IMG/VR virus record: IMGVR_UViG_3300009170_000011
Location: 1 to 37,379 of that record
Reading direction: 5' to 3' (one strand)
DNA from: a virus
Length of the DNA stretch: 37,379 bases
Numbering within the stretch: the stretch's first letter is position 1; each line of letters starts with the position of its first letter. Shown here piece after piece: positions 9,039 to 34,485 of the stretch. Both the position numbers and the translations under genes were made by a program. Under the pieces are notes generated by a model that ran no database searches, was not told the DNA's origin, and worked only from the letters and a program-made list of their open reading frames with translations.

Positions 9039-10685
9039 CTACGGGGCCGGTGCCCAGATTGTGCCCACCGGCGGTGACACCGGGCGAGCCGCGGACACCA
9101 CAACCGCCACCGGTCCCGTCGAGCCAGTCGGGCCCTGAATGCCCTGCGATCCAGTGGGACCAGTCGGCCCGGTCGGACCCACCGGCCCCGTCGGGCCGAC
9201 GTTGCCCTGCGGGCCGGTAGGCCCGGTCGGACCCTGCACACCCTGAATGCCTTGGATGCCCTGAATGCCTTGGATGCCCTGCGGCCCAGTCGGCCCCGTC
9301 GGCCCTTGGATGCCCTGCGGACCCGTCGGTCCCGTCGGGCCGATCGGACCCACCGGACCAGTGCCCACCGGGTCGCCGTCGGTGTCCCACCACAACGCGG
9401 TCCGCTCGCTGATCGGCACCGGCAGCGGCGGGGTGTCCGGCTGCGCGAACATCAGCGGGTACTGGAGGTGGTCGTCGTCGGCCAACCCCGTCAGGGCGCC
9501 ATGATCCCCGGTGCCGCCGCCCATGCCGGACGCATCGACGTAGATGTACCCGTCACCGCCGAGAGTGGCCGCGTTGTCTGGGTCGGTGGATACCACCGTC
9601 GGGCCGGGCGCCCCGGTCGGGCCGGTCGCACCGACAGTCCCAGCGGTGCCGGACGCACCCGTTGGGCCGGTCGCACCAGAGGCCCCCGTGGGGCCTGTCG
9701 GGCCCACCGTTCCAGACGCGCCAGTGGGGCCAGTGGGGCCGATGGAACCAGCCGGTCCCGTTGGGCCGGATGCGCCGGTGGGTCCAGTCGCCCCAGTCGA
9801 GCCAGCCGTTCCTGACGCCCCCGTCGGACCGGTCGGACCCACGCTGCCCTGCGCACCCGTGGGACCAACGACACCCTGAATGCCCTGCGGTCCCGTCGGC
9901 CCGACCGCGCCCGTCGGCCCGGTCGCACCCGCAGTGCCAGCCGTGCCGCTCGCACCCGTCGGCCCGGTGGCCCCCGTGTTGCCCTGAATACCCTGCACGC
10001 CCTGCGGGCCAGTCGGCCCCTGAATGCCCTGCGGGCCAGACGCACCCGTCGGCCCGGTCGCACCCGTGGACCCAGCCGTTCCGCTGGCACCGGTCGGACC
10101 TGTCGGGCCAGCGACGGTGGACGCCGCACCCGTGGCACCAGTCGGGCCGATGACGCCCTGCACACCCTGCGGGCCGGTGGGCCCGATGACGCCCTGCGGG
10201 CCAGTCGGACCGGCAACACCCTGAATGCCCTGTGAGCCGGTCGGGCCGGTCGGACCCGTGGCACCAGCGCTACCCGTGGAGCCCGCCGTGCCGGACGCCC
10301 CAGTCGGACCCGTCGGACCGACGGACCCTGCCGCCCCGGACGCACCAGTGGGGCCGGTTGGCCCAGCGACGCCCTGCGGCCCGGTCGGGCCGACGGTACC
10401 GGCTGTCCCTGACGCACCCGTCGGGCCTGTGGGGCCGATCCCGCCCTGCGGCCCAGTAGGACCGGACGCCCCACTCGGGCCGGTCGGGCCAGTCGCACCA
10501 GCGGCACCGCCCACTCCTGTCGGGCCGGTGGGGCCAGCGACACCCTGCGGTCCCGTTGGGCCGAGCGGTCCCTGCGCGCCGGTGTCGCCGACCGGGCCGG
10601 TGGGACCGGCCACACCCGTCGGACCCGTCGCACCAACGGCGAGGCACTGCCACTGCGCGCCGTCCCAATACTTGAGCGATGCCAT
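9039..10685 (-). CDS. Large collagen-like tail fibre protein
   Basis: A 548-aa protein. The cap [18 protein letters not shown] resembles the W-N-G-x-x-W unit of nearby proteins. Gly-X-Y repeats dominate residues about 18-370. A globular insert follows ([47 protein letters not shown]), then a second Gly-X-Y tract containing a run of GIQ/GVQ triplets and a short tail ([12 protein letters not shown]). The STDPDN...GGDG module recurs in the fibre at 14548-16293. The glycine repeats make the DNA highly repetitive, including a perfect 18-bp tandem duplication at 9241-9276. It is probably a long trimeric fibre shaft. Confidence 0.8.
9241..9276. repeat. Perfect 18-bp tandem duplication in collagen-like gene
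   Basis: CCCTGAATGCCTTGGATG is present twice head to tail and encodes GIQGIQ repeats on the minus strand. It could expand or shrink by slippage without a frameshift. Confidence 0.8.
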
Positions 10686-10686
10686 C

Positions 10687-12801
10687 TCAGACCACCCTCA
10701 TCCGCACCGACGGAACGACCAGTGACTGCCGGTCACCCGCCACATAGTTCCACGGGTTCGGGGCTGAACCGCCGACGAAGGTGATCGTCCGGCGCAGCGC
10801 CGTCACGTACGAAGTAGCCGCGTTCGTCAGCAGACCCAGCGAGCGCACACCGCCAACTGCGATCCCGCGCAGCGTCGCCGTGGAGGAGGCCCAGACCCCG
10901 ATCCAGTACGTCCGGCCCTGCTGAAACGTCAGGCTCGTCGCCGCCACCTTGTCGCCAGTCGTGGAGAAGTCGAGGTCACCGGACACGAAGATCGGCGCGT
11001 TCGGCAGCCCAGCGGCGGTGGAGTCGTAGATGACGATGCGGCCCAGCGCGCCCGCGATCAGCGTGGACACCGACACGCCGACCTGATCCACGGAGAACGT
11101 CTTGGGTGCCACGTACGGGGCGAGCACGATGGTGTTCGCCACCCCGGCGATCGTGCCCGGGGCCAGTCCGACGAACGACTGGTCCACGAACGACCCCGGC
11201 AGGATCAGCGGGAGGAACGCGACAACATCGGCCTTCGCGTCGAGAGCGGCCTGCAACCCGGTGACCGCGCCGATCGGGTGCGAGTCCGGGTCGGCCAACC
11301 CCGTCAGGTCGCCGTGATCGGTGACCCCACCACCACCACCGCCCGTGCCGCAGGAGAAGTCGTCCTCGTCCACCCACAGCGGCACGTTGGCCGTGCCCGG
11401 TGGCAGCAAGGTCGGGTCGCCCGGGTCGCCCGGCTGGATGATCGTGTACGTCCCGCCAGCCGCCCCAGTGGGACCAGTCGGCCCAGCAGGACCCGTGGGG
11501 CCGACGATCGGGCCAGCGTCCACCCACGAGTCGCCGTCCCACGTCCACAGATGGCCGGTGTCCGTGGTGATGTACCCGTCGCCGGTCTGGTTCCCCGTCG
11601 GCGGCAGCGCCCCCGAGTTGGAGACGGAACCCTTGATCGTGACACCCGTGCCCGGCTGGCCCTGCGAACCAGTCGGCCCGGTGGGGCCGGGCACCGTGGA
11701 CGCAGCCCCAGTCGCCCCCGTGGGTCCAGTCGGCCCGGACGGCCCGGACGGCCCGGACGCACCCGTCGGGCCAATCGCTCCAGTGGGACCGACCGGACCC
11801 TGAATGCCCTGCGGGCCCTGAGTCCCGGTGGGACCTGTCGGACCCGCCACGCCCTGCACCCCAGTCGGACCTGTCGGACCCACGACACCCTGTGGTCCTG
11901 TCGGGCCGACGTTGCCCTGCGGACCAGAAGCGCCAGTCGGCCCCTGAATGCCCTGCGGGCCGCTCGCCCCGGTCGCGCCCGTCAGGCCAGTGGCACCCGT
12001 GGGGCCTATGTTGCCCTGAATCCCCTGCGGGCCGGTGGGGCCAGTGCGACCAGTCGGGCCGGTCGGGCCGATCTGACCCGTCGGCCCCGTCGGTCCCGGT
12101 ACCGTCGAGGCCGCCCCCGTAGCACCCGTGGCACCGGTCGCCCCCGTTGGGCCAGCCGGGCCCTGCGCCCCAGCGGAGCCAGCCGGGCCCTGCGCCCCAG
12201 TCGGCCCAGTCGCGCCTGTCGAACCGGGAGCGCCTGTCGCCCCGGTCGCGCCCGTGGCCCCGGATGCACCGGTCGGCCCGGTCGCACCAGCGGCACCCTG
12301 AGCGCCGGTCGGGCCCAGCGCGCCAGCCGGGCCCTGCATCCCCGTCGGCCCCTGCGCGCCGGTCGGCCCTGTCGGCCCGGACTGACCGGTCGGCCCCAGA
12401 GGCCCAGTCGGGCCAGCAGAACCCGTCGGCCCAGTCGGGCCCTGAGCGCCCGGCACCGGGATGATCGGCCCCGGCACACAGTCCGTCGGCAGCACGTCGG
12501 ACAGCCGGATCGGCTCCGACCCGGTGAAGATCGCCCGGTACGTCAGGTCCACCCCATCGAGGCGGACCCGCACCTTGTAGATCACCGGGCCATCGACCAT
12601 CCAGCCCGGGTCGAACGAGTCGATCAACTCCGCGCTGAACGACCCATCATCGAGCGGGGCCTCCACCGGAGTCTCCGTCACGGTGCCCGGTGCGTTGATG
12701 TTCGGCGCCGTCGTCAGCGGGGTGAACGCGACACTGCCCGTGTGCGGCGTCCCATCGGCACGCAAGTACCGGTCGAACACCGTCACCATCAGCAGGCTCA
12801 T
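10687..12801 (-). CDS. Large collagen-like fibre with N-terminal attachment domain and beta-sandwich tip
   Basis: A 704-aa protein from ATG 12801 with GGAGG eight bases upstream. Residues 1-110 form a non-repetitive domain ([38 protein letters not shown]), probably for virion attachment. Gly-X-Y repeats run from about 115 to 400 with short interruptions. A module [15 protein letters not shown]...[18 protein letters not shown] follows, also present in the fibre at 14548-16293. Then come a poly-Gly stretch and [14 protein letters not shown]. The last 170 residues are a beta-sandwich-like domain ([35 protein letters not shown]). It is the longest of the ten collagen-like proteins. Confidence 0.8.
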
Positions 12802-12815
12802 GGCGTCATCCTCCC

Positions 12816-14537
12816 CTACGAGTTGTCGATCGAGCCGTCGCTGACAGTGTTGTCGTAGACGATCACCGCGCCCGCGTTGTTACTGCCCTTCTCCCGGTAC
12901 TTGTTGTACGCCTGCTCCGCAGCCAGCGACAGGTTCGACGGTGCAAACAGGTTCTCGCGGATGACGACCGTGTGAACCGACGAAGGCAGCGTCTCAGTGC
13001 CGGTGTCCTCGATTGCCACGAAGTAGTCCGAACCGCCCCATGTGCCGTCCACGTTGTTCAACTCCACGATCACCTGCTCATGGCGCATCGACGCGTGCCC
13101 CGAAGTCGCGGTGATACCCGGGCGGGTCGAGGTCTTGTTGCGGATCACGTTCCCGGCCACCCGGTAGAACCGGGGCTCACCGTTGGCTGTGATCGCCTTC
13201 TCGTTGATGTAGAAGTTGATCGGCTGGAAGCAGTCGATGAACGTGTTGCTCAACACCTGCACGTTCGACCACACGTAGGCCCGGAACGCCCCCTCCGACC
13301 CGGCGCCGTTCGCCCCGTTGCCGTAGGTGTTCGGGTCGATCTCTTGGAAGGTGTTGTTCTGGACGAGGATGTTCGCGGGGATGCCCTTGGGGTACCCGTT
13401 CCCGGCGTCCTGCTCGTAGTGATGGCTGCCAATGCCACGCGGTGCGCGGTAGAACGTGCAGCCCTCCACCCTCACGTTGTTCGACACCGTGCCGTCGTCA
13501 GCCACGTCCGACGCCGACCCCGCCCATGAGTAGTCCAACTGCACGCACTCGTCCTCAGCCCGACGCGGCTTGTCGGGGTTGGATGACGCGTTCGACATCG
13601 TGAAGTAGCAGTTCAGCAACTCCACGTTGAACGTGCCGTCCGCACGCGCACCGCCCGACGAGTTGATCTCGATGTAGTGCTTCTTCCCGCCCATGTTGGA
13701 GAAGTCGCAGCCATTGACACGGAACCGGCGGCAGTGCGAGATCGACATGCCACCGGTCCACCCCGAGCAGTTGACGCGGACGTTCTCCAGCAACCAGTCG
13801 TAGTTCGGTGAGTTGTAACCGCCGCCGCCGTTGTCCTGAATGCGGAACACCACCGAGTCCACAGCCGGTGCGTTCAGCAGGGGCCGCGACGCACCGGACC
13901 CGGCACCGACCAGACGCACCCCACGGCGCATGAACAGGGTGCCGTCGAGGTTGTACGTGCCCGAGGCCAGTTCGACACAGGCCATCGTCAGATGGTTGTC
14001 GAAGTTGACTGCCGTACCGGTCTGGTTGGCGACGAAGAAGTTTCTGGCTCTGTCCAGCGCCGCCTGAATCTGGGCCCGAGACGACCCAGCCGGAACGACC
14101 TCATGGAAGTGTGTCGGCGCCGGAACGGTGGCCGTCTGGGTGGTCGGCCCGAACGTGGTGTTGCCGCCCTTGGTCGCCACGTCGGCGTACCACGCGAACG
14201 ACCCAGCCGAAGCGTGCGATGCCCCAGAGATGGTGGCCGTCGTCGCACCCTCTGCCGGGTTGACCGTGGTCGAGTAGCCGGTGAACCGGAACGTGACCAC
14301 AGCACCCTCGGGGAACCCGCCCGGAGCGGTCAGGGTGACGCTGTACGCCTCGCCCGTGCTGACCCCGGTCTTGGACAGCGACAGGGTGGCCGAGACGACT
14401 GGCGGCACCCATGCGAGCACCCATGATGAGCCGTTCCACACCTTCGCCTTCTTGCCCGCCACCCACGACGAGCCGTTCCACACGGGCATCGCCTTCGCAG
14501 GCACCCACGACGAGCCGTTCCACACCGACACCGGCAC
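12816..14537 (-). CDS. Right-handed beta-helix (pectate-lyase-like) tailspike protein with W-N-G repeats
   Basis: The best start is GTG 14537, five bases after GGAGG, giving 573 aa. The N-terminus has three 14-residue repeats of [10 protein letters not shown], encoded by near-identical 42-bp units. An Ig-like domain follows ([18 protein letters not shown]...). From about residue 135 comes a parallel beta-helix with repeated N-x-x-V/F-x-x-C/N-x-F steps: [79 protein letters not shown]. This fold is typical of polysaccharide-degrading tailspikes and GH28/pectate lyase families. Catalytic residues cannot be assigned. It is a likely capsule or wall-glycan depolymerase or binding protein. Confidence 0.8.
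14418..14525. repeat. Three 42-bp-period repeats encoding W-N-G units
   Basis: Near-identical 24-bp blocks start at 14418, 14460 and 14502, exactly 42 bases apart, and encode V-W-N-G-S-S-W at the N-terminus of the beta-helix protein. Confidence 0.8.
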
Positions 14538-14547
14538 GGGGACCTCC

Positions 14548-16293
14548 TCAGTATTGGACCCACACGGTGCCGACTCCTTGGCTGGGCGTGCCCGACGGTG
14601 CCGCCGTGGACGAGATGACCGCCTCGCTGTTCCCGGTGCCCGCATCACGGGTCAAGTACCGGGCGTCAGCGAACGCGGTGTCCAGCGCCACCAGATCAGC
14701 GGCCACCGAGATGCCCGTCCCGGCGCCCACGTTGATCGTGCGATCAGCAGTCAGCGCGCCGCCGCCGGTCAGGCCGTTGCCCGCGACCACACTGCGGCCC
14801 GCCACCGCGTCCACGTCACTCTTGCGGGCCGCGTTGGATGCACCCAGCGGGGCCGGGAGCGCCAGTTGCCCGGTCAGCGTGCCACCGGCCAGCGCAAGGT
14901 AGCGGGCGTCCCCACGCGCGTCGTTGAGGTACTGCGGATGGTCGTCAGCGCCGAGCGCTGCCAGCGCCGAGTGCTCCAGCGACAGCGCCCCTGCTGACGC
15001 ACTCGGGTCCACCCACAGTTCCAGATCGGGGTTGTCGGGCAGCGACGGCTGGATGATGACCTCATCCTTGCCGTCCCCACCACCGGTCACGGTGGGGACG
15101 AACAGCAGCCCGTCACCACCGAGCACCGCCATGTTGTCCGGGTCGGTGGACACCGCCGTCGGCCCGGGAACGCCCTGTGTTCCCTGCACACCCTGCTGGC
15201 CCTGCACACCCTGCGGGCCCTGTGGCCCGGTCGGCCCGGTGGCCCCGGTCAGCCCGGTCGCACCCGTGGGGCCGGTGGCCCCGGTCAGCCCCGTCGGCCC
15301 TGTCCGCCCAGTCGGGCCGGTGGCACCAACCGCTCCCGCCGCACCCGTGGGGCCGGTCACGCCTGCGGCCCCCGTTGGCCCAGCCGCACCCTGCGGGCCA
15401 GAGGCGCCGGTCGGACCTGTGGCGCCAGCCGCCCCCGACGCACCTGTCGGGCCAGTCGCGCCAACCGTCCCGGCGGCACCGGTCGGGCCGGACGGGCCAC
15501 GGATCAGCCCGGCGTCGCTCCACGCGCTCCCGGTCCACACCCACAGGTGGCCGGTGTCGTTCGTGATGTACCCATCGCCTGCCGTGTTCCCAGTCGGCGG
15601 CAGGTTCGCCGACGACGCGACCGAACCCTTGATGCTGACCGACGTACCCGCCGCACCCGTCGCACCGGTCGGCCCCGTCGGACCCCCCGACCCTGTGGGG
15701 CCGGACACCCCCGTCGGCCCCGTGGACCCGGTGGGTCCGATCAAGCCCTGCGGCCCGGTCGGACCAGAGGCACCCGTCGGGCCGGACGCACCGGTCGGGC
15801 CAGCGTTGCCCTGCACACCCTGCGCACCGGTCGGGCCGGACGCGCCGGTCGGACCCTGCACCCCAGTCGGACCAGCGACACCGGCGGCACCGGTCGGACC
15901 CTGAGCCCCCGACGGACCGGTCGGGCCGAGCACACCCTGCTGGCCCTGCACACCCTGCACACCCTGCGGCCCCGTTGGGCCGTCGAGTCCCCGGTCGCCC
16001 CGGTCACCCTTGTCACCCTTCGGGCCGACCGGACCCTGCCAGCCCTGCAACCCCTGCTGCCCCGTCGGACCCGTGGGCCCCAACGGCCCCGCCTCACCCG
16101 TCGGACCCGTCGGACCACCGAACGGACCCGTCGGACCGACCGGGCCACACGGACCAGTCGGACCCGTCGGGCCGAGGTCGCCCTTCGCCCCATCCGGGCC
16201 GATCGGCCCGGGAGGACCAGCGGTGAACGCCGGGCTGTAGCAGTCCTCAACCGACGCCGGGCGCGGGATGTTGCCGGGGTTCCTGCTCGTCAT
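14548..16293 (-). CDS. Large collagen-like tail fibre protein
   Basis: A 581-aa protein with AGGAGG four bases before the ATG. Residues 1-25 ([20 protein letters not shown]) are unique. Gly-X-Y repeats span about 26-225 and include a charged stretch ([16 protein letters not shown]), as in stable collagen triple helices. The [15 protein letters not shown]...[13 protein letters not shown] module interrupts, and a second Gly-X-Y tract runs to about 385. The C-terminus carries [34 protein letters not shown] and [15 protein letters not shown], the last a segment common in phage fibre trimerisation regions. It ends [14 protein letters not shown]. It is the first fibre gene after the minor tail genes, so it may be the fibre closest to the baseplate. 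Confidence 0.8.
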
Positions 16294-25496: not shown

Positions 25497-27155
25497 TTAC
25501 GCCGCTTCTGCGAGGCAGGCGACCAGATCGGACGCCGCCGTCTGGCCGGAGACGCAGATCGGGATGGTCACCTTGCAGGTGTGGGTGCACTTCTGCACGG
25601 CGAGGACGCCCTGCTCCACGAAGATGCCGGTGAAGGTGTTGGACTCCAGCCCCACGGAGTCGTACACGGCGTCCATGGAGATCACGTCCGCCGTGCCCTT
25701 GGCCCACGTACCCGCCGGGTACATGAGGACCGACACGTTGGCCGGGATGGTGACCGCGCAACCTGCGACGGCCAAGTCCTGCCAGTCGTAGACCCACTGG
25801 ACCTTGATGTTGCGGGCCGAGAAGTTGGCCTCGATCTGGGCGTCGGTGACGCTGTTCCAGTCCTGCCCGTTGCGGCGGGCCACGTCCATGCGGATCAGGG
25901 ACTTGAGGAACACCGGGGCGACGACCTCGATGGTCGCGTTCTCACCGAGGCGGTACTGGTACCGCATCCCGATGGCCTGCAACTCCAGCGCGTCCAGCGC
26001 GAAGGAGATCGGGTCGGTGCCGGGGACGGTGACCCCAGCCCCGGCGGCGGTGTTCATCTGGCCGATGACCCACGCGTTGACCTTGTGCGCGTGGGCGACC
26101 AGCGCGCCCTCGGTGTAGCGGCGGACCAGTTCGGGGTAGGCCGCGTTCGTGAGGATCGGGACCTTGACGCACATGCCCACCGCGTCGAGGCGGACCTCCT
26201 CGAAATCGGGGCAGGTCACCTCGCAGCAGGTCTTGCACTCGCCCGCGATGGCCTCAGCCTCGGTCTGGTGGAACCCGCAGTTCGCGTAAATCTCCGAGAA
26301 GTCCGGGCCCGGGGTGTACCGGATGCCGCCGCGCGACACGCCGAACTCGGGGAGGTCGAGGATGCCGCTGACTGTCTCCATCTGGCACATGTCGTACAGC
26401 GTCTCCGACGGGGCGCACCAGCCACCGGCGGCGACCAGCGACCCACCGGACAGGCGGGACTCGTCACCGGCGCGCTGGATCAGCGAGTAGTCGTCGTACT
26501 CGCGTCCCTGCATGAGGTTGCCGTGGTCCATGCGGATGACGGCGGCCCCGAAGCGCTGGCGGACCGGCGACGGGGCCATGCCACGGGGCAGGCCCTTGAG
26601 CCGGGCGACGAGCGCGGCACCGGCGACACCGAGGTCGTCCAACTCCTGCCCGGCGGCGAAGCCGGACACGTCGGCTGCGGCCACGAGGGCCACGACCGGC
26701 TGGATCGCTGCGGCCACGACGGGCTCGGGCGCGTTCTGGGCGGCGCGGGCAGCCGGGCTCTGGGTAGAGGCGGCGACCGGCACGGGGGTGTTCTCGGCCA
26801 CGGGGGCCTCCTCGTTCTCGATGGGGGTGGGTGCCTCCTGCTCCACCTCGGCCACGGGCTCGGCCACGGGGGCCTCCTCCGCGATCTCGGTGTCCTCGGC
26901 GGTCTGCTCGGGCACGGTGGCCAGCAGTTCTGCGGCGCGCTGGGCGCGGGCCTCGGCAGCGGCCACACGGGCCTGCTGCTCGGCGCGCACGGCGCTGACG
27001 AGGGGCGCGATGCGCTCGCCCTCGGCGATGGTGTCCTCGTCGGAGTCGGCGGTGATGCCCAACTCCTTGAACGCGTCGAGTCCGGCGTTCAGGGCGGCGT
27101 TCAGTTCGTCGTCGGACAGGGCCGACAGGTTCTCAGGCAGTTCGTACTGGGCCAT
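25497..27155 (-). CDS. Major capsid protein, HK97 fold, with N-terminal scaffold (delta) domain
   Basis: A 552-aa protein with GGGAGAG upstream of the ATG. Residues 1-165 are charged, helical and Ala/Glu/Pro-rich (LSALSDDELNAALNAGLDAF, RVAAAEARAQRAAELLATV), as expected of a scaffolding delta domain removed by the prohead protease. The mature part begins near GLPRGMAPSPVRQRFG and includes LVAAGGWCAPSETLYDMCQM, FGVSRGGIRYTPGPDFSEIY, MRYQYRLGENATIEVVAPVF and DVISMDAVYDSVGLESNTFT. About 13 cysteines are present, including ECKTCCEVTC and KCTHTC, unusual for HK97-fold capsids in general. The G-G-W-C-A-P-S-E string also occurs in the protease fusion upstream. Confidence 0.85.
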   Translation of the reverse strand: MAQYELPENLSALSDDELNAALNAGLDAFKELGITADSDEDTIAEGERIAPLVSAVRAEQQARVAAAEARAQRAAELLATVPEQTAEDTEIAEEAPVAEPVAEVEQEAPTPIENEEAPVAENTPVPVAASTQSPAARAAQNAPEPVVAAAIQPVVALVAAADVSGFAAGQELDDLGVAGAALVARLKGLPRGMAPSPVRQRFGAAVIRMDHGNLMQGREYDDYSLIQRAGDESRLSGGSLVAAGGWCAPSETLYDMCQMETVSGILDLPEFGVSRGGIRYTPGPDFSEIYANCGFHQTEAEAIAGECKTCCEVTCPDFEEVRLDAVGMCVKVPILTNAAYPELVRRYTEGALVAHAHKVNAWVIGQMNTAAGAGVTVPGTDPISFALDALELQAIGMRYQYRLGENATIEVVAPVFLKSLIRMDVARRNGQDWNSVTDAQIEANFSARNIKVQWVYDWQDLAVAGCAVTIPANVSVLMYPAGTWAKGTADVISMDAVYDSVGLESNTFTGIFVEQGVLAVQKCTHTCKVTIPICVSGQTAASDLVACLAEAA

Positions 27156-27421: not shown

Positions 27422-30145
27422 TCAGACCTCCACCTTGTCCTTGAGCGCGGCAACGCGCAGCGCCCTCGTATCGTCCAGCAGTGCCGCCGCGCGCGCACGC
27501 CGCGTGGCCCGCGCCTCCACCTCGTCGGCCACGGCCCTCACGAAGTCGGCCACGTCGTCGGCGTCGCCGCTGTCCGGCATGACGATGCCTGCGGCGACCA
27601 GCGACTCCTGCCGGTCCCCGGACGCGGCCAGAGCCACCCGGGGGATCGGGAACCCGGGCACGTTCACGCCCAGTGCGGCGACCAGTTCCAGCGACCCGCC
27701 GATGTCGCGCCAGTCCCCGGACACCGCCCCCGCTGCGCGCAGTTCGTAGCGCTGCTGCTCCGTGGCAGTCGGGCGCATCGCCCCGGCCATCCAGATGCCG
27801 TACTCGTCCTGACCGACCCGGATGTCGGCCACAGCGGCCCCGGTGTTGTCGTAGTGGGCTGCCGCCTGCCGGGCGCTGACCCCGCGCGCGGTGCTCGCGT
27901 GGCCGGTGCCCATGGTGATCTGGCCGACGTGCACATCGGTGCCCTCGGCGGTGCGGACCACCCCGGTCATGAAGTAGGCGTAGTCCGAGGCTGAGGTCGG
28001 CGGCTCCGTGCACACCCCGGTGATCCCGATGTGGCAGGTGCCCCACTGGGCGACGTGGCCGAACACGCGACCGTCGTCGGTGATGGTCAGCGCGGTCGGC
28101 CCCTCCAACTTGGGGTCCTCGTACCACTCCGACGGTGCGCACCAACCGCCCGAGGCCACGAGGTGCAGCGCCGGGGCCGGGGTGCCGAGGGCCATCGGGT
28201 TGCCCGGCTTGCCCTTCTCGCCCGGCCAGTAGCCCAGCGCGTCGTGGTGCCACTGGGCCACCGTGCGGTTGAGGAACTGCGGGCCGATGTACTTGGCCAG
28301 ATGCGCGCGCAGCCGCCGGAAGTCGCCCGGGGTGCCCCAGCCGATCTTGGCGTAGCCCTCCTCGCCGGGCTTGGTCCAGTAGTCGTGGATGCGCTTGGTG
28401 GCCACCGGGTCGGTCACCCAGCCCGGTCCGCGCTTGAACGCCTCCGTCTCGCTGGACGCGGCGACCGCCAGTGGCACGTCGGCCACGAACGGCAGCGGCA
28501 CGTCCTGCCCGCCGGTCACCGGCCCGGTCGGCGAGTTGACGCTGACCCGGAACTCCTCCGGGGTGACCAGCCCAGCGGCCATCGCATCCACCTCGGGCTC
28601 CACCCACTCGCCCAGCACGACGTACGCCTCGGCGAACGCGGGGATCGCGCACAGGGTGGCGGCGCTGATCCGGCCCTTGTTGAACAGGATCGACTGCGCC
28701 TCCTCGTCCTCCACGGCCATCTCCGCACTGTCCACGTCCACGGACACCCCGCGCGCGTGGCCCTCCGCGTACAAGCCGATCACCTCGTCGGCCTCCGGCG
28801 TGTCGGCGAAGAACCCGGCCCCGCGCAGCAGGTTGCCGTCCCGCCAGATGTTGTTGATCTGCCCGACGATGACCGCGCCCTCGTGGCCCATGCCGTTCGA
28901 CTTCTGCCACAGCAGCGGGATCGGCAGGTCGCGCCACTCCAGCGCGCCCGGCGCGAACCGGCGCCCGTCACCGGACGGGATGCCCTCGGGGGCGAGCACG
29001 CCGTTCCACGGCACCGGCTCCACCGACCAGTCCTCGTCCGGGTTCCCACCGTGGGAAATCGGCTCGTCCTCGTCCACGACGGGCATATCTTCCTCGACCG
29101 CGACGCTCATCGGGTACTCCTCACCCTCGTAGTCACCGTCCCAGACTGCCAGACGATCGAACCGAATCGTCTCACCCGGCTCACCCTTCGCGGGAGTGGT
29201 CGGGTATCCGAGGGTCAGGTGCGGGGTCCACTGCGGGTACTGGTCCACCGCGTCGTGTGCGGCCTTGATCGTCTCGTGGGTGAGCATGTAGTCGCGCAAC
29301 CGGGTCATCGGGCCGGGGTCCAGCATGAGCACGTCGGCGTCGTCGTCGCCCAGCGGCTCCCGGCTGGTGACCGCCAACTCCTGCGGGCCCTCAGCCGCGC
29401 CGAACTCCATCGCCGCTCCCTTGACGCCGCCGAGGATGGAGCCCCACTGCTCCGGGGTGAACTCCTGCTTGCCCAGCCAGATCATCGTCATGTGCGGCTT
29501 CGGCTCACTGGAAGCGTTCCAGATCGGGTCATCCTGCGCTGGGATGGCCACGATCACCTTGCCGGTGGCCTCTGGGTCGGCGGCGGCGGTCACCGGGCCG
29601 GGGAGCACGGCGGGCGCCGCGACACACCGGCAGTTCAGCCAGCACTCCGGGTCACCCACCGGCTCACCGGGGAACGCCATCTCCTCGCCGCAGGCGATGA
29701 AAGGGACACCCCACGGCACCACCTGCCCATCGGCCTCGACATGCTTGGGCCGCACCTTCGCGTCGCGGCGGGACAGCCACATCTTGCCGCCCTCGCTCTC
29801 CGTCCCGGCGACCTTGGCCCCGTTGACGGTGGCGGTGCCCAGCCAGTCGGCGATCCGCTTGGCCTCCGACGACTCGACCACCGCCTCCAGCCCGGACCTC
29901 ACCCGTCCGTAGAACCAGTCCCACGCCTTGCGCGGGGAGTCGAAGATGGCGAACGGGGACAGCCCCTCGGCCTCGTACTGGGCGAGGAACGACGCGTACA
30001 GCGGGTCGGCGATGTACTCGGCGAAGTCCTTGCCGACCAGCCCCGCCTTGAGGGCTTCGTCGATCGCACCGAACAGGTCGGCGGACACCCGGTCCATCTC
30101 CTTGAGCCGGGAGATACGGAACTCCTCGCGTGCGGTGTCGGACAT
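27422..30145 (-). CDS. MuF / 2H-phosphoesterase-like / prohead protease fusion protein
   Basis: A 907-aa protein with AAAGGAGG before the ATG. Residues 1-180 look like the C-terminal part of a MuF minor head protein, ending PECWLNCRC. Residues about 195-345 carry the two H-x-T motifs of 2H phosphoesterases, His218-Met-Thr220 (KPHMTMIWLG) and His309-Leu-Thr311 (WTPHLTLGYP), as in 2'-5' RNA ligase-like proteins. Residues about 375-515 are a caudoviral prohead protease (NGVLAPEGIPSGDGRRFAPG) with likely catalytic His421 (GMGHEG) and Ser468 (ARGVSVDVD). Residues 570-840 are an actinophage-type extension: KRGPGWVTDPVATKRIHDYW, GGWCAPSEWYEDP, WGTCHIGITG, AHYDNTGAAVADIR. It should cleave the capsid delta domain. 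The role of the 2H domain is unknown. One 15-bp palindrome lies at codons 363-368, in the linker. Confidence 0.8.
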   Translation of the reverse strand: MSDTAREEFRISRLKEMDRVSADLFGAIDEALKAGLVGKDFAEYIADPLYASFLAQYEAEGLSPFAIFDSPRKAWDWFYGRVRSGLEAVVESSEAKRIADWLGTATVNGAKVAGTESEGGKMWLSRRDAKVRPKHVEADGQVVPWGVPFIACGEEMAFPGEPVGDPECWLNCRCVAAPAVLPGPVTAAADPEATGKVIVAIPAQDDPIWNASSEPKPHMTMIWLGKQEFTPEQWGSILGGVKGAAMEFGAAEGPQELAVTSREPLGDDDADVLMLDPGPMTRLRDYMLTHETIKAAHDAVDQYPQWTPHLTLGYPTTPAKGEPGETIRFDRLAVWDGDYEGEEYPMSVAVEEDMPVVDEDEPISHGGNPDEDWSVEPVPWNGVLAPEGIPSGDGRRFAPGALEWRDLPIPLLWQKSNGMGHEGAVIVGQINNIWRDGNLLRGAGFFADTPEADEVIGLYAEGHARGVSVDVDSAEMAVEDEEAQSILFNKGRISAATLCAIPAFAEAYVVLGEWVEPEVDAMAAGLVTPEEFRVSVNSPTGPVTGGQDVPLPFVADVPLAVAASSETEAFKRGPGWVTDPVATKRIHDYWTKPGEEGYAKIGWGTPGDFRRLRAHLAKYIGPQFLNRTVAQWHHDALGYWPGEKGKPGNPMALGTPAPALHLVASGGWCAPSEWYEDPKLEGPTALTITDDGRVFGHVAQWGTCHIGITGVCTEPPTSASDYAYFMTGVVRTAEGTDVHVGQITMGTGHASTARGVSARQAAAHYDNTGAAVADIRVGQDEYGIWMAGAMRPTATEQQRYELRAAGAVSGDWRDIGGSLELVAALGVNVPGFPIPRVALAASGDRQESLVAAGIVMPDSGDADDVADFVRAVADEVEARATRRARAAALLDDTRALRVAALKDKVEV
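29043..29057. promoter_or_regulatory. 15-bp palindrome, site 4 (inside protease fusion gene)
   Basis: Perfect TTCCCACCGTGGGAA. It falls in the linker between the 2H-like and protease domains and encodes ISHGGN on the minus strand. This is a different reading frame from the FPTVG-encoding copies, so conservation of the DNA rather than of the peptide is implied. Confidence 0.7.
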
Positions 30146-30155
30146 GACCCCTCCT

Positions 30156-31922
30156 TTAGGGTTCGACCACCCCAGCGGCGATCAGCGCGGCCTCCAGCAG
30201 GTCACGGTGGTGCTTGCGCTGGTCGTTGATGATGAACCGGACGTACCCGTCGATGGCCGCACAGATGCGGGCGGTGTCCACCGGGCTGCCTGTTGCCTCA
30301 AGCACCTCAGCGGCGAACGCCCACGCGCCATCGACAGCATTCTCCGGCACCGTGTCCACGTACATGTAGCGCCAGTGCGACGGCGTGTCGGCCAACTGCG
30401 CCTTCATCGTCCCGTTGCACAGCCGGTTGCCGACCCGCTCCAGCGCCCGGTAGACCAGCGCGTCGGCGGCGGCGATCATGCCCTCCCGGGACTCCCGGTC
30501 CTTCGTGGACCGCTGGAGGTCGGGCACCCGGTTCTCCGGGTGGCCCTCCAGTGACCGGCGCGGTTGCAGCACCGGTGGGATCGTCGGCTGGGCCTCGCCC
30601 TCGACGGCCAGCGGACCGAGGTCGGCGCCGAGCAGCCGGAGCGCGGCCTGCGTCTGCTCCGGGCTGGTCGAGCCGGTGGCGATCCGGCGCAGCAGCCACT
30701 CGCGCTCCTCCTCGCCCTTCGGCTCGTCCTCGGGCAGGAAGCCTGTCTCCCGGCGCAGCGCCGTGCCCGACAGTTCGCCACGGTCGTAGAGTTCCACGGC
30801 CTCCCGCGAGCGGTTCGGGCGCAGCCGGATGTCGGAGGTGTCGGCCAGCACGTAGTAGTCCTCGGCGTCGGCGGCGCCGGTCAGCGCCGGACGCAGGTAT
30901 GCCTCGGTCAGCGCGTGACAGATCACCTGCAACCGGGGCTCCAGATGGCTCTTGATCGCGGCCTCGTCCACCAACCACGCGTTCCAGTGGTTGCTGTCAC
31001 CCATGCCGAGCAGCACCTCGGGCGGGGTGTCGAGGCCGATGGCCAGTCGCTTCACCGCGTTGTCGCGCATGTTGATCGTCTCGGCGTCCAACTCCGACCA
31101 GAAGGTCATGTGCCGGGCCTTCTCCAGATACTCGCCCGGGGCGGTGACCACGATCGGCACGATCGCGCTGGCCGACGCGCGGTCCTTGATCGGGGTGACC
31201 ATCGCCTCGCCGAGGACGGCCATGAACTGATCGGCCACCGACGCCGACGGGTCGGCCTCCTTCGGGGTGGGGAAGGTGATCTCGGAGGGCACCCAGAGGA
31301 TGCCCGCACCGGCCAGCCGGGACTCCAACTGCGCGGCGATGTGGTCGGACAGGGTGGCGATCTCGGCCAGCGTGCCCCGGTTCGACTGGGTGGGCGAGTC
31401 GGCGCGCAGCGGCTCCCGGGGGTGCGGTGTCCACACCCGGATGGCCATGTCCTTCTTCGACTGGATCGGGGTGCGGGCCCCGTCGCCGAGGTCGCAGGTC
31501 AGCGACCCGCTGGACCCGTTCACCTTGTCGTTGGCCAGCACCGTCCACATGTCCTTGAGCATCACGTCGTAGAACTCGCCCGCGACGGTCAGGTGCACCC
31601 CGGCCTGCTGGAGCATCTGCTGCTGGCCCTGCAACCCGCCGTGGTACGCGGCCAGCGCCTCGACCGCCTCCCCGTCGTGCTGGACCACGAGGGTGTCCTC
31701 GACCCGCTTGGCGACGACCAACTTGGCCCGCGACATGACGTTGCCGACCCAGTTGGCCACGAACCGCAGTTCGGCCACCCGGTCGTAGAACTGCCACGCC
31801 TCGGCCTGCCACGCTTGGGCCTTGCCGACAGCGTTGCGCTGCACCGGCGGCATCCGCAGGGCGCTGGCGATCAGTGAGTTGTGCTCCGGCACCGGGGCGG
31901 GTCGGGTGCGGGTACGGGCCAT
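30156..31922 (-). CDS. Portal protein
   Basis: A 588-aa protein from ATG 31922, one base after the upstream stop (TGACATG). It begins with a basic tail (ARTRTRPAPVPEHNSLIAS). Next come FYDRVAELRFVANWVGNVMS, LVVAKRV, QAGVHLTVAGEFYDVM, VWTPHPREPLRADSPT, LAIGLDTPPEVLLGMGDSNH and WNAWLVDEAAIKSHLEPRLQ. This series is characteristic of actinophage portals, with the L-D-x-P-P-E-V-L-L-G-M motif especially diagnostic. It forms the dodecameric DNA channel at the capsid vertex. Gene order terminase, membrane protein, portal, protease fits. Confidence 0.9.
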   Translation of the reverse strand: MARTRTRPAPVPEHNSLIASALRMPPVQRNAVGKAQAWQAEAWQFYDRVAELRFVANWVGNVMSRAKLVVAKRVEDTLVVQHDGEAVEALAAYHGGLQGQQQMLQQAGVHLTVAGEFYDVMLKDMWTVLANDKVNGSSGSLTCDLGDGARTPIQSKKDMAIRVWTPHPREPLRADSPTQSNRGTLAEIATLSDHIAAQLESRLAGAGILWVPSEITFPTPKEADPSASVADQFMAVLGEAMVTPIKDRASASAIVPIVVTAPGEYLEKARHMTFWSELDAETINMRDNAVKRLAIGLDTPPEVLLGMGDSNHWNAWLVDEAAIKSHLEPRLQVICHALTEAYLRPALTGAADAEDYYVLADTSDIRLRPNRSREAVELYDRGELSGTALRRETGFLPEDEPKGEEEREWLLRRIATGSTSPEQTQAALRLLGADLGPLAVEGEAQPTIPPVLQPRRSLEGHPENRVPDLQRSTKDRESREGMIAAADALVYRALERVGNRLCNGTMKAQLADTPSHWRYMYVDTVPENAVDGAWAFAAEVLEATGSPVDTARICAAIDGYVRFIINDQRKHHRDLLEAALIAAGVVEP

Positions 31923-31923
31923 G

Positions 31924-32247
31924 TCATGCCTCCGGTGGGATGTCGCGGACATTCAGCATGGCTGCGAGGTACGCGACCGCCAGCCAGCCATGGAACAGCC
32001 ACCATGACCAGTGCAAGTCAGAGAGAACCGCCCACGCGATCGACGCGGCGGTGAAGTAGGGGGCCACGCAGAACGGGCACTCGATGAGGGTGACCCATGA
32101 GGACTGCCCCCATGCCCGGTCCCAGATGCGGCGGAACCACAGCATCGGCGGCCAGTCGTCGTCCACGACCAAGCGGGTGAGCCGGGCGACGCCGAGGGTG
32201 CCGACCACGACAGCGGCCAGCAGCGTCGGCCAGTCAACGCCCCACAT
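31924..32247 (-). CDS. DUF1360-like membrane protein
   Basis: A 107-aa protein with GGGAGG four bases before the ATG. It has three hydrophobic stretches: LLAAVVVGTLGVARLTRLVV at the N-terminus, PYFTAASIAWAVLSDLHW in the middle, and FHGWLAVAYLAAMLNV near the end. The motif LIECPFCVAPYF matches the conserved C-P-x-C region of DUF1360-type proteins. Such genes recur between terminase and portal in actinophages, with unknown role. A 33-bp gap separates it from the terminase stop; its own stop is one base from the portal ATG. Confidence 0.7.
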   Translation of the reverse strand: MWGVDWPTLLAAVVVGTLGVARLTRLVVDDDWPPMLWFRRIWDRAWGQSSWVTLIECPFCVAPYFTAASIAWAVLSDLHWSWWLFHGWLAVAYLAAMLNVRDIPPEA

Positions 32248-33675: not shown

Positions 33676-34049
33676 GTGCGCAGCGCCCGGGCCCGGTTCC
33701 CACGCGGCTTGCTGTACCGGGTCAGGTTCTCCCGCAAGTCCTCCGGCGCACACCCGGCGCGGGCGGCGAGGTCGGCCAGCACCGTGTTCCTGATGTACTC
33801 GCTGGGGTGCACCCCGTCGGCGGCTGCCGCCTTGGCCACCTCGCGGGCGGCGACCACCCCGAAGGTGACGTAGCAGTTCCACCGGTCGGGGGTGGACTCG
33901 CGGGCGACGACGGCGGGCGGGCCCCCGGCGGTGGTGGTGCGCCAGTCCCGGGCTTCCCGGGCGCGGTCGGCGTCGGTGGCCAGCATCCGGCCCGCCTCCT
34001 TGTCGGCGTCCACGATCTCGGGCGGGTCACGCCTCAATGGCGAGGACAT
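33672..34049 (-). CDS. Hypothetical protein between small and large terminase genes
   Basis: A 125-aa protein from ATG 34049, six bases after GGAGG; the gene overlaps the preceding one by 23 bases and its stop overlaps the large terminase ATG. The N-terminal half is polar (DPPEIVDADKEAGRMLATDA, DRAREARDWRTTTAG). The C-terminal half has AAADGVHPSEYIRNTVLADL followed by a basic end (RYSKPRGNRARALRT). The segment H-P-S-E-Y-I-R-N-T-V-L-A-D-L-A resembles the helical part of ribbon-helix-helix proteins, so DNA binding is possible. It may be a packaging accessory; family not recognised. Confidence 0.55.
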   Translation of the reverse strand: MSSPLRRDPPEIVDADKEAGRMLATDADRAREARDWRTTTAGGPPAVVARESTPDRWNCYVTFGVVAAREVAKAAAADGVHPSEYIRNTVLADLAARAGCAPEDLRENLTRYSKPRGNRARALRT

Positions 34050-34485
34050 CGGCCTCCTCCACGTCGATGACCGATGACGACTTGGACAGCATCTCGGCGA
34101 CCCATGTCTCGATCTCGGTGGTGGTGGGGGTGTAGACGATGACCTCGGTGGGCATGTCGAGGCCGAGGAGCCGGGCGTGCCGATCGACCATGCTGAGGGC
34201 GACGCGGGCGGCGGGCAGGTGTTCGGGGTCGTGCGGGTTGGTGGCCTTGGCCCACACCCCGCGCAGCAGGCGTTCGATGCGGGCGGCTTCCTCGGCGCGC
34301 AGCGCGATCCGCTCGGAGGCGTCCACGTCGCGGGCGGCGAGTTCGTTGCACACGAGGTCCCGTGCCTCGGCGGCGTCGGCGAGGGCCAACGTGTCGGCGA
34401 TCTCGGCGTAGGAGGCCCCGGCGAGGCGCAGGGCCAGCCCGGCGCGTCCGGGGGCTTGGGTCACGGCGCGGCGCTTGCGGGGCAT
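34027..34485 (-). CDS. Terminase small subunit (probable)
   Basis: A 152-aa protein whose ATG follows the ParB-like gene's stop by one base. A basic start (MPRKRRAVTQAPG) leads into a helix-turn-helix-like LALRLAGASYAEIADTLALA. The middle is a long helical region (EEAARIERLLRGVWAKATNP), and VALSMVDRHARLLGLDMPTE is typical of actinophage small terminases (R-x-A-x-L-L-G-L-D-x-P). The acidic C-terminus could contact the large subunit. Small terminases recognise the packaging site. Length and position two genes before the large subunit agree. Confidence 0.7.
   Translation of the reverse strand: MPRKRRAVTQAPGRAGLALRLAGASYAEIADTLALADAAEARDLVCNELAARDVDASERIALRAEEAARIERLLRGVWAKATNPHDPEHLPAARVALSMVDRHARLLGLDMPTEVIVYTPTTTEIETWVAEMLSKSSSVIDVEEADVLAIEA

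What the first reader, a model, noticed from the sequence alone, without database searches (positions are those of the whole stretch)
27422..30145. 2H-phosphoesterase-like domain fused between MuF and prohead protease
Two H-x-T motifs (218-220 and 309-311) at the spacing seen in 2'-5' RNA ligase/2H proteins lie between the MuF region and the S78-type protease. A MuF protein is normally packaged in the capsid and can be ejected, so a 2H enzyme carried there could act on nucleotide messengers (for example cyclic or 2'-5' linked signals of host defences) on entry. That would be a virion-borne anti-defence activity, which is speculation.
Basis: partly seen in the sequence, partly recalled or inferred. 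Interest (0 to 1): 0.68.

Follow-up and report, generated by a model that had tools for sequence, protein, structure and literature searches.

The report
Phosphodiesterase cassette inside capsid polyprotein
A phage of actinobacteria carries an intact two-histidine (2H) phosphodiesterase domain inside a fused capsid protein, which may carry an enzyme against bacterial nucleotide alarm signals into the host; the idea was already published as a prediction and no test of it was found.

Summary
The 907-aa minus-strand ORF at 27422-30145 holds a well-folded 2H phosphodiesterase domain (residues 194-348) between MuF and an HK97/T4-type prohead protease. AlphaFold2 gives pLDDT 92.7; the best PDB matches are LigT/2H proteins (Z up to 12.7). 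Both H-x-T motifs are kept in 76 of 76 metagenomic relatives, under varied codons. The family profile's nearest solved sequence is the penguinpox cGAMP phosphodiesterase.

Substrate, packaging and injection remain untested.

Added here: (1) 2H is an optional cassette at a protease-like junction. A motif shared with the coat-protein site sits in the disordered MuF|2H linker, and mycobacteriophage versions without 2H carry a near-copy of the coat site there, which predicts self-processing in the prohead. (2) Every complete stand-alone relative in the sample carries a 25-aa DUF7211 box (58/58; 0/16 polyproteins). That box also occurs on toxin-fold proteins and an annotated structural protein, so it is a candidate virion-loading tag. 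The tagged relatives are one clade, so this is a single fusion event.

The parts
27422..30145 (-). capsid polyprotein, 907 aa: MuF - 2H - prohead protease - helical domain - C-terminal domain - helix
   Evidence: 50 phage records hold 80% or more of it at up to 41% identity
29612..30145 (-). MuF region, residues 1-178
   Evidence: PHROG 2468 at residues 104-180, E=1e-15; Pfam Phage_Mu_F 91-176, E=6e-4; folded block
29579..29593 (-). VTAAA, residues 185-189, predicted prohead-protease site in the MuF|2H linker (179-193)
   Evidence: motif shared with coat-protein site; 10 of 15 such linkers carry it, shuffle mean 0.67; low pLDDT; cleavage itself is inferred
29102..29566 (-). 2H phosphodiesterase domain, residues 194-348
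   Evidence: AF2 pLDDT 92.7; PDB Z up to 12.7, nearly all 2H proteins; PF13563 in 12/12 members
29486..29494 (-). first catalytic motif HMT, residues 218-220
   Evidence: H-x-T in 76/76 viral-contig relatives
29213..29221 (-). second catalytic motif HLT, residues 309-311
   Evidence: H-x-T in 76/76 viral-contig relatives; H-x-S in the portal-fused relative Hendrix gp47
28601..29020 (-). prohead protease domain, residues 376-515 (candidate catalytic Ser468, His421)
   Evidence: TIGR01543 E=2e-4; Foldseek matches T4 gp21 and herpes assemblins; Ser468 invariant, His421 column not invariant
28208..28405 (-). small helical domain (PHROG 6439), residues 581-646
   Evidence: E=9e-16; found in other phage proteins
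28148..28162 (-). LVASG, residues 662-666, start of LVASGGWCAPSE, near-copy of the coat-protein site
   Evidence: low pLDDT linker
27731..28147 (-). C-terminal domain, about residues 667-805
   Evidence: PHROG 18402 head maturation protease family at 671-892; matches several hundred actinophages
27587..27601 (-). LVAAG, residues 849-853, third site of the same motif
   Evidence: low pLDDT stretch 806-865
25497..27155 (-). major head protein, with SLVAAGGWCAPSE at its residues 239-251
   Evidence: PHROG 777 E=3e-152; motif
30156..31952 (-). portal protein, with three copies of the motif
   Evidence: PHROG 776 E=8e-148; motif

Best explanation
The segment is a catalytically intact 2H phosphodiesterase carried as an optional cassette in a capsid polyprotein. 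Fusion to MuF and to the prohead protease brings it into the prohead. The embedded protease is predicted to cut the A-A-rich linkers (at least MuF|2H), as it cuts the coat protein, leaving the 2H domain as internal head cargo that leaves with the DNA. In the new host it most likely hydrolyses a nucleotide signal of host defence (CBASS- or CRISPR-type cyclic oligonucleotides first). Shown: fold, catalytic residues and their conservation, architecture, head-gene position. Inferred: packaging, cleavage, ejection, substrate.
For: 2H fold with high confidence; both H-x-T motifs invariant under varied codons, which speaks for an active enzyme; nearest solved sequence is a cGAMP PDE, E=2e-5, and Acb1 is among the fold matches; fusion to MuF and protease in a head operon; coat-like motif in the MuF|2H linker and in the same junction of 2H-less relatives; the same 2H family is also joined to a portal protein and, as a separate gene, to the DUF7211 box.
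Against: No activity, proteomics or ejection data. The fold serves many substrates. The motif was chosen after looking, homologues are not independent, and the window's own 2H|protease linker (349-375) lacks it, so clean release on both sides is not supported for this protein. No defence system of the host is known, because the host is unknown.
Confidence: 0.45

Rival explanations
1. The packaged 2H domain acts on RNA rather than on signals: it opens 2',3'-cyclic phosphate ends left by host RNases, or trims host RNA like Usb1, soon after DNA entry.
For: Fold matches include LigT, plant-type CPDase and Usb1 at higher Z than Acb1. Iyer et al. 2017 favoured an RNase role by analogy with other MuF-fused RNases (PMC5512222).
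Against: Nearest solved sequence is a cGAMP PDE. Iyer et al. note that these phage 2H domains are not associated with RNA ligases, which weakens a repair role. No RNA ligase was seen among the window genes examined, but the record may be a fragment.
Confidence: 0.27
2. The enzyme works late in the producing cell, before or during assembly, against signals set off by phage late proteins; its place in the head protein only couples its expression to assembly.
For: It is encoded among late head genes, and in some relatives it is a free gene beside terminase or between protease and coat genes.
Against: A head-assembly fusion is an odd way to make a cytoplasmic enzyme, and the same domain is independently joined to MuF, portal and DUF7211.
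Confidence: 0.17
3. The 2H domain is a structural spacer or nucleic-acid binder in head assembly without catalysis.
For: It sits in a polyprotein with other domains of unknown function.
Against: All four catalytic residues are invariant in the 53-row alignment; homologous polyproteins do without the domain.
Confidence: 0.08

Closest known systems
2H domains fused to MuF or portal (Iyer et al. 2017, PMC5512222; 2022 survey, PMC9503650)
   Same: 2H fused to a head protein; proposed packaging, injection and action on nucleotide signals
   Different: Those passages do not describe the MuF-2H-protease order, the coat-like linker sites or the DUF7211-bearing relatives
'Capsid maturation protease and MuF-like fusion protein' of Arthrobacter and Microbacterium phages (e.g. 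MellowYellow gp21, Hyperion gp22)
   Same: Same architecture over 89-94% of the length, 2H included
   Different: 35-41% identity; the 2H part is not named in those annotations; Curtobacterium Kithara gp23 is named 'RNA ligase'
MuF-protease fusion of Mycobacterium Bclasvirinae (Obutu gp12, HSavage gp9)
   Same: MuF, protease and C-terminal domain in one chain; coat-site motif at the MuF|protease junction
   Different: No 2H domain, so 2H is optional
Acb1, anti-CBASS phosphodiesterase
   Same: 2H fold and HxT/HxT tetrad (Z 8.4; PMC9117128)
   Different: Acb1 is a free protein made after infection; sequence similarity is very weak (E=0.27)
Avian poxvirus cGAMP PDE (9bkq; PMC11410667)
   Same: 2H fold; best sequence match of the family profile (E=2e-5)
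   Different: Virus of animals, separate gene; substrate of the phage domain unknown

Membership tests
2H phosphoesterase superfamily | two H-x-(T/S) motifs about 75-120 residues apart | tested here: met
   218-220 and 309-311; conserved in 76/76 viral-contig relatives
2H phosphoesterase superfamily | LigT-like fold | tested here: met
   AF2 pLDDT 92.7; PDB matches up to Z 12.7, nearly all 2H proteins
2H phosphoesterase superfamily | profile match to PF13563 | tested here: inconclusive
   window domain E=0.0016, below gathering score; family members up to 4.5e-11
2H phosphoesterase superfamily | phosphodiesterase activity | not testable with these tools
   needs the purified domain
Acb1 (anti-CBASS protein 1) | Acb1 profile match | tested here: inconclusive
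   PF23474 E=0.28 for the window domain, best 0.016 in the family; fold Z 8.4
Acb1 (anti-CBASS protein 1) | hydrolysis of cyclic oligonucleotides and rescue from CBASS | not testable with these tools
   needs assay
MuF head proteins | MuF domain in a head operon | tested here: met
   PHROG 2468 E=1e-15; Pfam Phage_Mu_F E=6e-4 though below its gathering score; next to portal and head protein genes
HK97/T4-type prohead protease | protease fold | tested here: met
   Foldseek matches T4 gp21 (E=3e-3) and herpesvirus assemblins; TIGR01543 E=2e-4, below cut-off
HK97/T4-type prohead protease | catalytic Ser and His | tested here: inconclusive
   Ser468 invariant in 15 rows, His421 present but its column not invariant
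packaged and injected phage effectors (MuF fusions, polyvalent proteins) | effector domain fused to a virion protein domain | tested here: met
   2H between MuF and protease
packaged and injected phage effectors (MuF fusions, polyvalent proteins) | presence in the virion and ejection into the host | not testable with these tools
   needs virion proteomics and an ejection assay

The most novel reading that the evidence does not exclude
Phages load one 2H anti-signalling enzyme into virions by two interchangeable routes: a protease-cut capsid polyprotein in which coat-like sites free the cassette, and a 25-residue DUF7211 box (HYGVKGMKWGVR) that acts as a general virion cargo tag for phage effectors (2H, glutamine-deamidase and ADP-ribosyltransferase folds).
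Probability: 0.22. Interest if true: 0.78.

Novelty: new member of a known kind. Interest (0 to 1): 0.42.

Why it matters
If the enzyme is packaged, released and ejected, it could disarm a signal-based defence before any phage gene is expressed, unlike Acb1, which is made after infection. Annotated relatives grow on standard laboratory actinobacteria, so packaging, cleavage and activity are directly testable. The DUF7211 lead, if it proves to be a loading tag, would flag many unknown phage proteins as virion cargo.

Tried and rejected
PDB sequence searches with the single domain, the whole protein and the coat protein found nothing; only the family profile reached solved 2H enzymes. PADLOC gave no hit. 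The annotation 'RNA ligase' on relatives is not taken as a function: it most likely echoes the '2'-5' RNA ligase' name of the 2H family (inference). A chance HxT pair was rejected by fold and conservation. Counting the DUF7211/2H association as 58 independent events was rejected: all tagged 2H proteins form one clade (100/100), so the fusion arose once. L025 was first counted among MuF polyproteins by a length rule; it is a polyprotein without a recognised MuF, though with VTAAG just before 2H. The 1708-aa open frame of L066 may include a 5' extension and was not read as a portal fusion. No paper in the library mentions DUF7211 or prints KGMKWG; GMKWG gave one unrelated paper. My protease His regular expression missed many relatives, so that residue is left open.

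Full report
What is there. The ORF at 27422-30145 on the minus strand starts with ATG and encodes 907 aa. It lies between a portal gene (30156-31952) and the major head protein gene (25497-27155). MuF is recognised near the N-terminus (PHROG 2468 E=1e-15; Pfam Phage_Mu_F E=6e-4, below its cut-off) and a prohead protease at 420-509 (TIGR01543 E=2e-4, below its cut-off). The H-x-T motifs are at 218-220 and 309-311. The window is a 37-kb virus record; its full-length relatives are phages of Arthrobacter and Microbacterium, with MuF-less versions in Curtobacterium phages.

The domain is a real 2H domain. A 53-row alignment of the window domain with viral-contig relatives gave an AlphaFold2 model with pLDDT 92.7 and pTM 0.88. 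Its best PDB matches are nearly all 2H proteins: TT0787 Z 12.7, PH0099 12.3, drCPDase 12.3, YjcG 12.2, LigT 11.7, rotavirus VP3 2'-5' PDE 11.4, Usb1 11.2, MHV ns2 10.0, penguinpox cGAMP PDE 8.8, Acb1 8.4. All 12 members of the first family alignment match Pfam PF13563 at E<=1, best 4.5e-11. A profile of the family finds the penguinpox cGAMP PDE first among PDB sequences, E=2e-5 with the 12-row and 1e-3 with the 53-row profile. Both motifs are present in 76 of 76 viral-contig relatives, using two His and four Thr codons at each place. The scan patterns covered part of the second motif but not the first, so conservation of the first is not a product of the search.

Anatomy of the whole protein. 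A model of all 907 residues from 15 rows is weak overall (pLDDT 65.8, pTM 0.29) but separates folded blocks (MuF 1-178, 2H 194-348, protease 376-515, helical 581-646, C-terminal domain about 667-805, helix 863-906) from low-confidence stretches (179-193, 349-375, 516-580, 647-666, 806-865 and some shorter ones). In a Foldseek search the model matches T4 gp21 and herpesvirus assemblins besides LigT-type proteins. Ser468 is invariant in the 15 rows; the candidate His421 column is not.

A processing code in the linkers (new here, inferred). Coat proteins of these phages carry L(V/T/I)AAGGWC(A/S)PSE, where I presume the mature protein starts. In this window the coat protein has LVAAGGWCAPSE and the polyprotein has LVASGGWCAPSE at 662. 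The shorter motif [LIVM][VTI]A[AS][AGSD] occurs 9 times in 2057 aa of polyprotein, coat protein and portal, and twice in 5849 aa of 13 other gene products of the window (Fisher p=1.7e-4). It occurs in 10 of 15 MuF|2H linkers (shuffle mean 0.67, highest 5 in 2000 shuffles) and in 6 of 12 2H|protease linkers (mean 0.14, highest 2). All three polyprotein sites (185, 662, 849) lie in low-pLDDT stretches. Mycobacterium phages Obutu and HSavage have the MuF-protease-C-terminal polyprotein without 2H, and carry RVAAGGW(A/T)APSE at the MuF|protease junction, like their own coat proteins. Limits: the motif was chosen after looking, the homologues are related to each other, no cleavage has been measured, and the 2H|protease linker of this very protein lacks the motif.

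2H as a mobile cassette. The same 2H family appears at the C-terminus of a portal protein (Hendrix gp47), at the start of a 2H-protease chain without MuF (Kithara, Sunfish), in a polyprotein without a recognised MuF (L025) and as a gene next to the large terminase gene. Annotated 'RNA ligase' genes with the two motifs are also found between protease and coat genes (YungMoney 19) and in a chain with the C-terminal domain first (Vivi2 gp16). Isolates annotate the family as 'RNA ligase' or 'phosphoesterase'.

The DUF7211 box (new lead). Every complete stand-alone 2H protein among the viral-contig relatives (58 of 58, counting the KGMQWG variant in L030; two further ones run off their contigs) carries a box like HYGVKGMKWGVR after the 2H domain; none of 16 polyprotein-type relatives does. 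In the 2H tree the tagged proteins are one clade (100/100), so this counts as one fusion that has been kept. Pfam names the box DUF7211, function unknown; of 62 such proteins four also match a glutamine-deamidase toxin fold and one an ADP-ribosyltransferase. Lactococcus phage 1706 orf7, annotated as a structural protein, has the box (GVKGMKWG) and a divergent second copy (GVIGMRWG), and sits in the same place before the terminase gene. I propose, as a hypothesis only, that the box loads cargo into virions.

What it does. Shown: fold, catalytic residues, conservation, architecture and head-gene setting. Inferred: packaging through MuF and the prohead, cutting by the embedded protease, ejection, and hydrolysis of a defence nucleotide. 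The signal reading is favoured because the nearest solved sequence relative is a cGAMP PDE and the 2H fold is repeatedly used against such signals (Acb1, PMC9117128; poxvirus PDE, PMC11410667). RNA chemistry is a serious rival.

Prior work. Iyer et al. 2017 state that 2H domains are fused to MuF or portal domains and may be RNases or degrade nucleotides of counter-invader systems (PMC5512222). The 2022 survey says that such fusions suggest packaging into heads and injection to counter nucleotide signalling (PMC9503650). The MuF-protease fusion of Microbacterium cluster EG is described in PMC7302621. The finding is therefore a new member of a known, untested kind, with the processing sites and the DUF7211 complement as added detail.

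Noticed in passing
L031-L098 stand-alone 2H ORFs; L100-L179; L219:2501-3889: A short DUF7211 box (HYGVKGMKWGVR) follows 2H in every complete stand-alone relative and also begins many unrelated phage proteins, up to eight per locus, some with toxin folds. Possible virion cargo tag.
   Followed up: partly
L005 / L022, between MuF and 2H: A basic insert of about 90 aa sits between MuF and 2H in this close relative, starting at LTAAA and ending at FAAD, as if another cassette had entered at the same linker.
   Followed up: no
L004, L005/L022, L006, L067, L075: Relatives carry an extra module (DGSYPIADEEDLRNAIQAIGRAKDP...) between protease and helical domain that the window's protein lacks.
   Followed up: no
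window 30156-31952: The portal protein carries the protease-like motif near its N-terminus (27), at 492 and near its C-terminus (590), which suggests that it too may be trimmed.
   Followed up: no
window 9039-16293 (-): Three long ORFs (9039-10685, 10687-12801, 14548-16293) match collagen-like tail fibre families.
   Followed up: no
window 34027-34485 (-): A 152-aa ORF near the terminase gene matches PHROG 645 (described as RNase E), E=1e-19.
   Followed up: no
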